Below are positions 23,260-47,610 of a DNA stretch of 64,000 nt, piece by piece (the stretch's first letter is position 1; each line of letters starts with the position of its first letter). Origin of the DNA: Mycobacterium sp. 155 (GTDB taxonomy: Bacteria > Actinomycetota > Actinomycetes > Mycobacteriales > Mycobacteriaceae); the NCBI RefSeq assembly GCF_000373905.1, contig NZ_KB892705.1:62001-126000 (forward strand), read 5' to 3'. The notes under the pieces are model-generated. The model did not search any database. It saw only the letters and a list, made by a program, of their open reading frames with translations, and was not told the DNA's origin. A program made the translations under genes and the position numbers.

Positions 23260-25029
23260 TTGTCCGTGATTGGGACCTCCTCTGCGGAGACCTCGATTCC
23301 GAGCTTGTTGCACGAGCGCGCGGTTCGCCAACCCGACGTGGCGGCGTTCACCTTCATTGATTACGAACTGGACCCCGCCGGCTACGTAGAGAGCCTGACG
23401 TGGTCGCAGGTCTACCAACGGGCCCGCGTGGTCGCCGAGGAGCTCACGCTCTGCGGATCGATCGGGGACCGGGCGGCGATATTGGCGCCACAGGGACTCG
23501 ACTACGTGATCGCGTTTCTGGGCGCGCTGCATGCCGGCTTCGTCGCCGTCCCGCTTTCCGTACCACAGATCGGGTCGCATGACGAGCGGGTGGCGGCCGT
23601 CCTTCGCGATTCCGCGGCGACGGTGATCCTCACGACATCTGCGGTTGCCGACGTCGTCCGAGGTTATACCGCCGCCGTCAGCCGCTCTGCGCCCAGCGTC
23701 GTCGAGGTCGACGCATTGAACGTCGATGCACTGGTCGAGTCGGCGCCGGCACGCACGGTGCGTTCCCGGCCGGCGTATCTGCAGTACACCTCGGGATCGA
23801 CCCGAACACCCGCTGGCGTGATGATCTCCCACCGCAACGTCGTTGCAAACCTCGAGCAGGTGATGACCGACTACTTCTCTGACAACGGCGGGGTGCCGCC
23901 GACGGACACCACGGTGGTTTCGTGGCTACCGTTCTTTCACGATATGGGCTTGATACACGGCGTTTGTGCGCCGATCCAAACCGGCTTACACGCGGTTCTG
24001 ATGAGCCCGATGGCCTTCCTGCAGCGGCCGGCGCGGTGGATTCAACAGCTGGCCATGAACACTCATTCGTTTTCGGCCGCGCCGAACTTTGCCTTCGAAT
24101 TGGCGGCACGCCGGACATCAGATGCCGATATGGCGGGCCTCGATCTGGCACACGTGGCGGGAATCATCAGCGGAAGTGAACGAATCCACGCGGCCACCAT
24201 CGCCCGGTTCAATGACCGGTTCGCACAATTCAACCTGCAGAAGACGACGGTGCGACCGTCCTACGGTCTCGCCGAGGCGACGGTGTACGTGGCGACAGCC
24301 GAGCGGGAGCGGGCAGGCAGTTCGGTCCGGTTCGAGTACGAGAAGCTCTCCGCGGGCCACGCCAAGCGGTGCGAGAACATCACGAGCGGCGGAACGGAGC
24401 TCGTGAGCTATGGCGCTCCACGCGCGTCGACACTGCGGATCGTGGACCCGGAGACTCTGCGGGAGAACCCCGCGGGCGCCATCGGTGAAGTCTGGGTGCA
24501 CGGGGAGAACGTCGCCATGGGGTACTGGCGGAACCCCCAGCAGACGGAGCGCTATTTCGCTGCCTCTGTGGTTAACCCGTCACCGGGCACCCCGGCCGGG
24601 GGCTGGCTGCGGACCGGAGACCTCGGCGTGATGTCGGATGGCGAGCTGTTCATCATCGGGCGCATCAAGGATCTGCTGATCGTCGATGGCCGCAACCACT
24701 ACCCCGACGACATCGAAGCGACGATCCAGGAGATTACCGGCGGCCGCGTCGCGGCCATCGCACTCCCCGATGACCGCACCGAGCACCTGGTTGCCGTCAT
24801 CGAAATCAAAGATCGGGGCGATTCGCGCGAAGACGCAATCGACCGACTACGCGGAGTCAAACGCCAGGTCACATCGGCGATCTCGCAGTCCCACAGCCTC
24901 CGGGTAGCTGACATCGTCCTGGTGCCACAAGGCGCGATCCCGATCACCACCAGCGGCAAGGTGCGCCGCTCGGCGTGTCTGGACCGCTACCGGCTCGACG
25001 ACTTCGCCCGCCTCGACAAAGCACTGTGA
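23260..25029 (+). CDS. Fatty acyl-AMP ligase (FadD26/FadD23-like FAAL)
   Basis: A 589-residue adenylating enzyme. It activates a long-chain fatty acid as acyl-AMP and loads it on a PKS acyl carrier domain instead of CoA. It has the adenylation P-loop YTSGSTRTPAGVMISH (about 172-187), the FAAL-type segment FSAAPNFAFELAARR, RPSYGLAEATVYVAT, WLRTGDLG, IGRIKDLLIVDGRNHYPDDIE and the C-terminal Lys in ITTSGKVRR. Sequence and length resemble FadD23 and FadD26 of M. tuberculosis. The start TTG at 23260 has AGGGTGG before it; a GTG at 23266 is possible. The stop overlaps tesA (GTGA). As first gene it should load the N-terminal ACP of the PKS two genes downstream. Confidence 0.93.
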   Translation: MSVIGTSSAETSIPSLLHERAVRQPDVAAFTFIDYELDPAGYVESLTWSQVYQRARVVAEELTLCGSIGDRAAILAPQGLDYVIAFLGALHAGFVAVPLSVPQIGSHDERVAAVLRDSAATVILTTSAVADVVRGYTAAVSRSAPSVVEVDALNVDALVESAPARTVRSRPAYLQYTSGSTRTPAGVMISHRNVVANLEQVMTDYFSDNGGVPPTDTTVVSWLPFFHDMGLIHGVCAPIQTGLHAVLMSPMAFLQRPARWIQQLAMNTHSFSAAPNFAFELAARRTSDADMAGLDLAHVAGIISGSERIHAATIARFNDRFAQFNLQKTTVRPSYGLAEATVYVATAERERAGSSVRFEYEKLSAGHAKRCENITSGGTELVSYGAPRASTLRIVDPETLRENPAGAIGEVWVHGENVAMGYWRNPQQTERYFAASVVNPSPGTPAGGWLRTGDLGVMSDGELFIIGRIKDLLIVDGRNHYPDDIEATIQEITGGRVAAIALPDDRTEHLVAVIEIKDRGDSREDAIDRLRGVKRQVTSAISQSHSLRVADIVLVPQGAIPITTSGKVRRSACLDRYRLDDFARLDKAL

Positions 25030-47300: not shown

Positions 47301-47610
47301 GGAGGCGGTGCTGCGGATCCATCGCCGCGGCCTTGTTCTCGTTGAGCCCGAAGAACGGGGCGTCGAAACCGCCAATATCGTCTAGAAACGCGCCCCACCT
47401 CGACACCGAGCGGCCCGGCACACCACGCTCGGCGTCGAAGTACTCGTCGGCATTCCAGCGGTCCGCTGGGACCTCGGTGACGAGATCGTCACCCCGTATC
47501 AACGCCTCCCACAGCAACTCCGGGGAGTCGATACCGCCGGGCAGCCGGCAGGCCATTCCGATGACGGCAACCGGCGTGACCATGGGTTCCGCCACAGGAT
47601 GGTCCTTCAC
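41353..47610 (-). CDS. mas: Iterative methyl-branched fatty acid synthase (Mas-type PKS)
   Basis: A 2085-residue highly reducing PKS, close to Mas (2111). Domains: KS (about 10-430, Cys179 in DTACSSGLLAVH); AT (about 535-830, GHSMGEVAA and VASHSPQVDPI, the methylmalonyl-type motif of Mas); DH (about 900-1190, DHQVHDVSALPGAAY); ER (about 1390-1720, TGGVGQAAIAIARH); KR (about 1740-1930, GGVGGLGLF); ACP (about 2000-2070, GLDSLGTLEL). Mas elongates fatty acids with methylmalonyl-CoA to multimethyl-branched acids. The whole length resembles M. tuberculosis Mas as recalled. It is transcribed towards papA5, the same relative orientation as in the DIM locus. The start is GTG 47610, or ATG 47583 (MVTPVAVIG), neither with a clear ribosome site. 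Confidence 0.94.
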   Translation of the reverse strand: MKDHPVAEPMVTPVAVIGMACRLPGGIDSPELLWEALIRGDDLVTEVPADRWNADEYFDAERGVPGRSVSRWGAFLDDIGGFDAPFFGLNENKAAAMDPQHRLLLETSWEAIEQAGMAPTSLAGTATGVYLGLSHDDHTSIALDADAYGYTETAACMASGRVAYTLAVHGPALTFDTACSSGLLAVHMACRSLDGGESDLALAGGCMVMREPRKNSWASAQGMLSPTGRCRAFDEAADGFVRSEGCAVVLLKRLPDALRDGDDILAVVRGTAANSDGRTRNIATPSFDAQVAACRAALAASGVDADTIGAVEAHGTGTPVGDPIEFASLAQSYGRSGEVLLGSAKSNFGHTESAAGALGFIKAVLELQHGVVPPMVHFNRLPDALAQIETGLTVPRETTPWPDGHAGPRRIAVSSYGISGTNVHAIVEQAPATRSCRSPRQDADDAIVRPMLIPLSSTSADELRRTCGRLADWLERRAESVGLEDLGYTLARRRGYRTVRTSVIAGDIKELCAALRDVAVGDAQYPAQVGQDDRGPVWVFSGQGSQWAGMGATLMETEPVFADTVASIEPLIVRESGFSVTEAMSASETVTGIDRVQPTLFAMQVALAATMASHGVRPGAVIGHSMGEVAAAVVAGSLSLQDGVRVICRRSKLLARLSGSGAMASVELSEQRVRDELASRGIDDVVVAVVASPQTTVIGGETQTIRKLVAAWEQREVMAREVAVDVASHSPQVDPILADLADSLADLAPGKPAIPFYSSTQDDPRALAACDPAYWVDNLRQVVRFSAAVQAALEDGHRVFAELAPHPLLTRAVEQTAEKMETPAAALTSMRRDQPSPHGLLGFVSDLHSAGAAVDFSVPYPDGRLVDAPLATWTHRHLLLSRAGGAGWGGHAQGHLVAVHPLLGAHVRLLEEPERHAWQADVGTAALPWLGDHQVHDVSALPGAAYCEMALAAGERLFPTGSEVRDVQFEELLLLDVHTEVAAVASIDAPGVAAFTVQTDDAGERVRRAVAVLYATEEGLPPGCRDLDDLLAAHPGTVSGEELRQSLAARGIEFGPAFTGLARVHTAEGGATLLAEIGAPAGIRAGQSGYCIHPAVLDACFQSVGAHLLVGGRRDSGGLLLPLSVGRLRRFGAGRDARYCHVTVTKADATVIEADLEVLDGNGGVILEISRLRLGSGATKAGERERLLADRLLTVEWEQRQPPTASVNGASAGRWLLISSDDTDDLPAHLTDALVAGGAQCRTAASVADADGLTGVVIVTAPAGDDPTEACLTRGRELVRQIVDIAGELSNTDSQPPRLYVVTRNSQAVASHDRVNLDQGGVRGLVRVIGAEQAPLRPSQIDVDSLTTADQLAQELLSGSDEDETAWREGSWYAARLRRTPLRAEERRTILADPGSDGMRLQIRTPGDLQTLEVVAAERPTPAAGQVEVAVGASSINFADVLAAFGRYPTFDGTQPQLGLDFAGVVTAIGPGVTEHRVGDKVGGFGAGGCWGTYVTCDARLVAPLPAGLTAEAAAAVSTGYGTAWYGLCDLARIGADDRVLIHSATGGVGQAAIAIARHAGAEIFATAGSPARRQLLRDMGIEHVYDSRSTSFADEIRRDTDGYGVDVVLNSLIGPAQRAGLELLAFGGRFVEIGKRDVYEHTRVDLYPFRRNLTFYYADLALMTTNAPKSIGALLRKVYELVGSGVLPVPEHTVHPLAEAATAIRAISAAEHTGKLVLSVPRNGATRVAVPPNRAPVFRSDGSYLVTGGVGGLGLFLAAVMASGGCGRIVLTSRSQPNAQAQKTIAALRSKGTDVVVECGNIADPATAERLVNAATATGLPLRGVLHAAAVVDDATLDNITDELLERDWAPKVRGAWHLHQAAASQPLDWFCNFSSAAVLLGSPGQGAYAAANSWLDAFTAWQRSQGIPASAIAWGAWADIGRGAAVAQRGDVTMISPEDGGYAFRALLRYDRGYTGYLPLTGMPLLVALAARSPFAEAFRDADGDHAASAATVLTELAGLTQDEWPNRLRRLVTDQVGLILRRAVDPDRSFAEHGLDSLGTLELRTHIETQTGIRLAPKTIVTYSTPRALAGHLTDTLEASSG

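What the first reader, a model, noticed from the sequence alone, without database searches (positions are those of the whole stretch)
23260..47610. A compact DIM-like lipid assembly line in a probable rapid-growing mycobacterium
Gene content and order (FAAL, tesA, ppsA-like, ppsE, drrA, drrB, drrC, papA5 on one strand, mas on the other) repeat the phthiocerol dimycocerosate locus of slow growers. However, ppsB, ppsC and ppsD are missing, as are fadD28, mmpL7 and lppX. With only two extension modules the predicted backbone is a long-chain 1,3-diol or beta-hydroxyketone rather than phthiocerol, esterified by PapA5 with Mas-made methyl-branched acids. I do not know of a described product from such a shortened line.
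Basis: partly seen in the sequence, partly recalled or inferred. Interest (0 to 1): 0.92.

Follow-up and report, generated by a model that had tools for sequence, protein, structure and literature searches.

The report
Shortened two-module mycobacterial waxy-lipid assembly line
A mycobacterium carries a shortened version of the enzyme assembly line that makes a well-known mycobacterial surface wax, and the joint left where a whole module seems to have dropped out can still be read in the genes, so it probably makes a shorter, so far undescribed lipid.

Summary
Window 23260-47610 holds FAAL, TesA, PKS1 (ACP-KS-AT-KR-ACP), PpsE (KS-AT-ACP-C), DrrABC and PapA5 on +, then WS/DGAT and Mas on -. No other PKS-sized Pps-like KS was seen in the genome. 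The line is not unique: 9 distinct complete two-module loci were found, including M. gallinarum and M. xanthum; M. komossense has a three-module PpsA-PpsC-PpsE line. New here: PKS1 is a mosaic. Its ACP-KS front is PpsA-type, its KR PpsB-type, and its ACP end plus docking tail PpsC-like and PpsE-facing. In all 9 lines the joint lies inside the ACP (66:1 against 5:31 diagnostic columns; three controls flat). A whole module was therefore probably lost by an in-frame ACP-ACP deletion that kept the PpsE-docking tail. AT motifs predict methylmalonyl for PKS1. The Pps-associated ketoreductase subgroup was not detected. I predict an alpha-methyl-beta-hydroxyketone (starter + 4 carbons) esterified once with a Mas acid, rather than a 1,3-diol diester. 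Chemistry is inferred. No description appeared in my literature listings.

The parts
23260..25029 (+). fatty-acyl-AMP ligase (FAAL), predicted starter loader; forms its own group with the FAAL of G067
   Evidence: Pfam/NCBIfam; FAAL tree; 77% to the FAAL of M. komossense, same FAAL-TesA order
24975..25808 (+). TesA-type thioesterase (true start may be downstream of the listed GTG)
   Evidence: PF00975; GHSMG motif in the translation
25890..30650 (+). PKS1: ACP-KS-AT-KR-ACP, mosaic loading and first extension module
   Evidence: Pfam; KS tree PpsA clade; KR tree with PpsB; AT motif DVASHH
30441..30647 (+). PpsC-like end of the PKS1 ACP plus the Arg-rich PpsE-facing docking tail, after the recombination joint (joint uncertain by about 23 residues)
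   Evidence: sliding identity and diagnostic columns with controls; tail comparison
30650..35128 (+). PKS2, PpsE-type: KS-AT-ACP-condensation-like domain
   Evidence: Pfam; KS tree PpsE clade 100%; PpsE-named relatives of the C-domain region
35129..36148 (+). DrrA-type ABC ATPase
   Evidence: NCBIfam TIGR01188 over cut-off
36145..36954 (+). DrrB-type permease
   Evidence: TIGR00025 over cut-off
36921..37772 (+). DrrC-type permease
   Evidence: TIGR01248 over cut-off
37854..39104 (+). PapA5-type acyltransferase, HHxxxD retained
   Evidence: PF16911; 386 bits full length to PapA5 1q9j
39125..40498 (-).
   Evidence: PF03007/PF06974; motif; present in 7 of 8 two-module loci where it can be seen
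41353..47610 (-). Mas-type iterative PKS KS-AT-DH-ER-KR-ACP
   Evidence: Pfam; NF041183 over cut-off; KS tree Mas clade 100%
48078..48668 (+). CMD-family protein, divergent from mas; function unknown, probably part of the locus
   Evidence: PF02627; 71-85% identity in G067, G123, G025, G194 loci

Best explanation
A naturally shortened, working relative of the DIM (phthiocerol dimycocerosate) assembly line. Inferred steps: FAAL loads a long fatty acid onto the N-terminal ACP of PKS1. PKS1 adds one methylmalonyl unit and its KR leaves a hydroxyl. Its Arg-rich tail hands the chain directly to PpsE, which adds one (probably malonyl) unit without reduction. Release and decarboxylation give R-CH(OH)-CH(CH3)-CO-CH3, i.e. 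starter + 4 carbons (C22H44O2 from a C18 starter; + 5 if PpsE uses methylmalonyl). PapA5 (and/or the WS/DGAT) esterifies the single hydroxyl with a Mas-made methyl-branched acid, and DrrABC exports the ester. Shown by sequence: the gene set, the clade placements, the mosaic structure of PKS1, the conserved PpsE-facing tail and purifying selection. History (inferred from sequence): the two-module form arose from a three-module PpsA/B-PpsC-PpsE line such as that of M. komossense, by a deletion with both ends in ACP coding sequence that kept the PpsE-docking tail.
For: Domains. KS and KR trees. Agreement of three parts on mosaicism: PpsA-type nACP-KS, PpsB-type KR (24-row clade, 100% SH-aLRT), PpsC-like ACP end. 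Joint: all 9 complete two-module PKS1s flip at the same ACP column, 66:1 A/B-like before and 5:31 C-like after (Fisher p about 6e-20; each of the 9 alone p<1e-10). Controls do not flip: M. komossense PpsA p=1.0 and PpsC p=1.0, G111 PpsC p=0.63. The M. komossense PpsA carries a PpsB-like tail and is followed by a module whose KS is PpsC-type and by PpsE. Tail: of 50 loci examined, 44 had a readable module before PpsE; 37 of 44 match a strict (post hoc) pattern, while 0 of 5 modules facing other partners do. AT fingerprint: canonical G074 PpsA, B, C = VAPHN and PpsD, Mas = VASH, fitting three malonyl and two methylmalonyl; the PKS1 of the window reads VASHH, and all 9 two-module PKS1s read VASH (VASHH in 7, VASHT in 2). 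Named chains PpsA 7akc and PpsC 7ahb also read VAPHN, Mas 5bp1 VASHS. Purifying selection.
Against: No chemistry or expression data. AT motifs predict extender units imperfectly: in M. intermedium (L036) and G113 (L136) even the module before PpsE reads VAPHN. The PpsE AT motif HGFH suggests malonyl, but canonical PpsE also has HAFH with a different GYSTGE motif, so its extender is uncertain. PKS1 could iterate. Absence of the ketoreductase rests on one subgroup definition that I drew at 66% identity after seeing the hits. The trees are quick ones whose printed checks warn of long branches meeting. The diagnostic-column counts treat columns as independent, and the joint moved by about 23 residues between two alignments. 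M. komossense PpsA itself was not in the KS or KR tree.
Confidence: 0.7

Rival explanations
1. The ketone is reduced by an unlinked F420-type reductase, giving a 2-methyl-1,3-diol that PapA5 esterifies twice (a short DIM).
For: G000 has a luciferase-like protein at C1:4415969 that is 55% identical to the DIM-locus gene of G074, its best match there. M. xanthum, another two-module carrier, has a 60% homologue. PapA5 normally makes diesters.
Against: The G000 gene has much closer relatives (66-88%); of the 33 genomes with this subgroup (G000 included) 18 lack PpsE, and it shows no association with PpsE (p=0.70). The 54-64% subgroup is associated (38 of 54, p=9e-7) but occurs in only 1 of 10 own-clade genomes. 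The G000 gene lies between menC-like and bpoC-like genes (labels recalled).
Confidence: 0.15
2. PKS1 acts twice (stutters), so two rounds of ketoreduction restore a 1,3-diol before PpsE.
For: PKS1 combines features of PpsA and PpsB, the two modules that make the diol in DIM (module roles recalled). PapA5 is retained.
Against: The PpsE-facing tail is fused directly to PKS1; modular Pps proteins are not known to iterate (recalled).
Confidence: 0.08
3. WS/DGAT, not PapA5, is the main acyltransferase and the end product is a wax-like ester or triacylglycerol carrying Mas acids.
For: WS/DGAT lies between papA5 and mas and is present in 7 of 8 testable two-module loci.
Against: A PapA5 homologue is present in 8 of 8 two-module loci long enough to show it; locus L030 lacks WS/DGAT (and DrrABC) but keeps papA5 and mas.
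Confidence: 0.1
4. A decayed DIM locus without a product.
For: Missing modules, no linked mmpL7 or lppX.
Against: Intact ORFs, catalytic motifs, dN/dS 0.12-0.32, and the same two-module arrangement in 9 loci.
Confidence: 0.03

Closest known systems
   Same: TesA, FAAL, PpsA-type start, PpsE-type end, DrrABC, PapA5 on one strand, Mas on the other
   Different: no PpsB, C, D; no linked second FAAL, MmpL, LppX-like or luciferase-like gene; WS/DGAT and CMD genes added; PKS1 AT VASHH instead of VAPHN
Three-module line of Mycolicibacterium komossense (L025/L179/L184)
   Same: FAAL-TesA order; first module 78% identical to PKS1 over residues 5-1543; PpsE in the same 14-row group; DrrABC; PapA5
   Different: keeps a PpsC-type DH-ER-KR module; its PpsA ends in a PpsB-like tail; no WS/DGAT found between papA5 and mas
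M. gallinarum locus (G146, L105/L155)
   Same: two-module line, 79-82% identical Pps proteins, WS/DGAT, Mas
   Different: TesA-FAAL order with a FadD26-group FAAL only 61% identical; no CMD gene found in the flank searched

Membership tests
PpsE | KS-AT-ACP-condensation architecture and KS in the PpsE clade | tested here: met
PpsA | N-terminal loading ACP and KS in the PpsA clade | tested here: met
PpsA | KR of the canonical PpsA type | tested here: not met
   KR groups with the PpsB KR of G074, 100% SH-aLRT
PpsA | malonyl-type AT fingerprint VAPHN | tested here: not met
   DVASHH
Mas | KS-AT-DH-ER-KR-ACP and KS in the Mas clade | tested here: met
PapA5 | full-length similarity to 1q9j and HHxxxD | tested here: met
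phthiocerol (DIM) biosynthetic locus | five Pps modules A-E | tested here: not met
   two modules; no other PKS-sized Pps-like KS in the genome
phthiocerol (DIM) biosynthetic locus | phthiodiolone ketoreductase of the Pps-associated subgroup | tested here: not met
   only the unassociated subgroup was found; subgroup cut drawn by me
phthiocerol (DIM) biosynthetic locus | LppX | tested here: not met
   single family member is LprG-like
phthiocerol (DIM) biosynthetic locus | MmpL7 | tested here: inconclusive
   none in the locus; 24-25% to two MmpLs seen; other MmpLs not compared
phthiocerol (DIM) biosynthetic locus | product is a phthiocerol/phthiodiolone dimycocerosate | not testable with these tools
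   no lipid data

The most novel reading that the evidence does not exclude
DIM-type lines telescope. Whole modules drop out through in-frame ACP-to-ACP deletions that leave the PpsE-facing docking tail on whichever module is now last but one. The five-module line shrinks to three (M. komossense) and then to two (this window and eight other complete loci), and each length makes its own surface lipid. The two-module form makes an undescribed mono-ester of an alpha-methyl-beta-hydroxyketone in non-tuberculous mycobacteria.
Probability: 0.5. Interest if true: 0.78.

Novelty: new variant of a known kind. Interest (0 to 1): 0.63.

Why it matters
Modular PKSs are thought to gain and lose modules, but natural intermediates with a readable joint are, as far as I recall, seldom available; here five-, three- and two-module relatives exist side by side and the joint lies inside an ACP. 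The tail that marks the module facing PpsE suggests a simple docking rule. DIM is usually discussed as a lipid of pathogens (passages), so a maintained DIM-like line in M. gallinarum, M. xanthum and relatives bears on where that lipid class came from. It also predicts a specific, mass-defined lipid.

Tried and rejected
Rejected: (a) the luciferase-like gene of G000 as the pathway ketoreductase. It looked like a reciprocal best match, but the genus-wide search showed an unassociated subgroup. (b) ORF 48135-48842 (-) as a gene: it is antisense to the CMD gene at 48078-48668. (c) Reading the G000 FAAL at 3516118 as FadD23 from its full-length score alone: on chains of like length FadD28 scores slightly higher (571 against 559 bits), and it groups with the FadD28-position FAAL of G074. 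In one search the row L146_own was taken as the longest frame of its locus, most likely the wrong strand, and is ignored; own35 is the same gene. (d) Shared chromosomal context: apart from the CMD gene, no flanking gene of the window was found at E<=1e-20 in the flanks fetched for M. gallinarum and G067; whether the locus moved was not settled. Two-module status of L034, L035, G163 and G144 could not be decided (contig ends). No structure prediction and no Rfam search was run.
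Full report
OBSERVATION. A CMD-family gene (48078-48668, +) lies beside mas; it was found beside mas in 3 other loci (G067, G123, G025) and in G194, where no mas was seen between it and WS/DGAT. The window is G000:C1:62001-126000 of a 4.61 Mb genome in 2 contigs.

WHAT IS ABSENT. The 16 PF00109 matches of the genome leave little room for PpsB, C or D. Besides PKS1, PpsE and Mas, the large frames are a two-KS frame (Pks12-like, label recalled), a 1809-aa PKS (Pks13-like, label recalled), and two PKSs near 3.31 Mb that fall outside the Pps and Mas clades of the KS tree. 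The others are frames of 387-466 aa and one of 3107 aa (FAS-I size, recalled), which were not put in the tree. LppX is absent as far as the family search shows; the single member is LprG-like. MmpL7 is not in the locus; a genome-wide comparison was not made. A homologue of the G074 saccharopine-dehydrogenase-like gene (position of the trans-acting enoyl reductase, recalled) gave no match (no positive control in that search).

RELATIVES. Of 198 genus genomes, 83 (the window's included; counted by me) have a near-full-length or split PpsE match at 57% identity or more (only two candidates per genome were scored there, so this is a lower bound). Ten of these form the window's own group (72% or more). 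Loci were fetched for 40 of the other 82, and named ones came. After removing duplicates, 9 complete two-module lines were found: the window, M. gallinarum (G146; named through the matching contig length), G067, M. xanthum (G123 = L032), G025, L027, L030 (= G127), L031 and L033. M. komossense and G111 (= L026) keep a PpsC-type DH-ER-KR module, and their PpsE KSs branch outside the 11 two-module rows. Another genome, G192, has two Pps-type lines in tandem.

TREES. KS (100 rows): PKS1 lies with canonical PpsA (14 rows, 99% SH-aLRT), PKS2 with PpsE (43 rows, 100%), Mas with Mas (7 rows, 100%). KR (88 rows): the PKS1 KR lies with the canonical PpsB KR (24 rows, 100%) and not with the canonical PpsA KR. 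These are quick trees with one support measure, and the tool warned of long branches meeting. FAAL: the window and G067 enzymes form their own group (97/100), while the FAALs of the other two-module loci in the tree lie with the FadD26-position FAAL of G074 (94/92). For the M. gallinarum FAAL, dS is 1.29 against 0.53-0.68 for five other genes of the locus, consistent with FAAL replacement in one lineage.

MOSAIC AND JOINT. The M. komossense PpsA ends in a tail like that of canonical PpsB. The window's PKS1 matches this A/B type up to the middle of its last ACP and then matches PpsC. Over 9 two-module PKS1s the diagnostic columns are 66 A/B-like to 1 C-like before the joint, and 5 to 31 after it. 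Each protein alone gives p<1e-10. The three controls (M. komossense PpsA and PpsC, G111 PpsC) show no flip (p = 1.0, 1.0, 0.63). A first run with 5 proteins gave 61:4 and 1:31 with a best split about 23 residues further downstream, so the exact breakpoint is uncertain. Because canonical PpsC already carries the ACP end concerned, the simplest history is loss of a PpsC module rather than its gain.

DOCKING TAIL. Of 50 loci examined, 44 had a readable end of the module before PpsE; 37 match the pattern, six others differ by a letter or two, and one (L109) is broken by a run of N. None of 5 tails facing other partners (PpsA, B, C of G074; the first two of G192's first line) match. The pattern was written after seeing the tails.

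CHEMISTRY (inferred). Canonical G074 PpsA, B and C read VAPHN and PpsD and Mas read VASH. This fits three malonyl and two methylmalonyl units (PMC3089613, section 20 read). The PKS1 of the window reads VASHH, and all nine two-module PKS1s read VASH, hence methylmalonyl. Its KR keeps the Lys/Ser/Tyr/Asn residues by eye (assignment recalled) and Pfam found no DH, so the hydroxyl stays. PpsE has no KR, so a ketone remains; decarboxylative release is taken over from DIM (recalled). PMC8498797 (passages) describes reduction of the ketone by a predicted F420-dependent enzyme as a step on phthiodiolone dimycocerosates. The G000 homologue belongs to a subgroup with no PpsE association (15 with, 18 without, p=0.70), unlike the Pps-associated subgroup (38 with, 16 without, p=9e-7), of which the own clade has 1 in 10 (cut at 66% drawn by me). 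Hence one hydroxyl and one ketone: starter + 4 carbons, C22H44O2 for a C18 starter, mono-esterified by PapA5 or WS/DGAT.

LITERATURE. None of the listed titles describes a two-module Pps line. The holding is open-access only. PMC4260522 was searched for six terms without a hit. PMC3089613 (section 20 and passages) reports ppsA-E or parts absent in several species, ppsC-E absent in M. vanbaalenii; partial loci were noted there without interpretation as shortened lines. M. gallinarum PpsE is already named by homology in databases.

VERDICT. Real, maintained, recurrent in a small group, and a new variant of a known kind.

Noticed in passing
G192 (L159-L161, L123): Two Pps-type assembly lines in tandem in one genome, with different module sets.
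   Followed up: partly
L115, L116, L118, L119, L127, L129, L130, L134, L138, L143: PpsE loci with papA5 directly after ppsE, no drrABC detected between them, and DH-KR modules in which no ER was detected.
   Followed up: no
L109 (G194) 13179-16185: WS/DGAT and the CMD gene are present but no mas was seen between them: mas loss or assembly gap.
   Followed up: no
L026, L033: Records titled Bifidobacterium breve MAG carry a mycobacterial Pps locus; the bins look mislabelled or contaminated.
   Followed up: no
window 21767-21840: A tRNA-Ala gene lies 1.4 kb upstream of the locus; no integrase was seen among the ORFs scanned.
   Followed up: no
window 52206-58838: ArsR and Fur regulators with a ZnuA/ABC/CobW metal-uptake set downstream of the locus.
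   Followed up: no
G000:C1:3516118-3522000 (L166): MmpL, PE-PPE-domain and FAAL genes in a row, resembling the trehalose polyphleate type of locus (recalled).
   Followed up: partly
L036, L136: The module before PpsE has a malonyl-type AT (VAPHN) that groups with PpsA/B ATs: apparent AT exchange.
   Followed up: no
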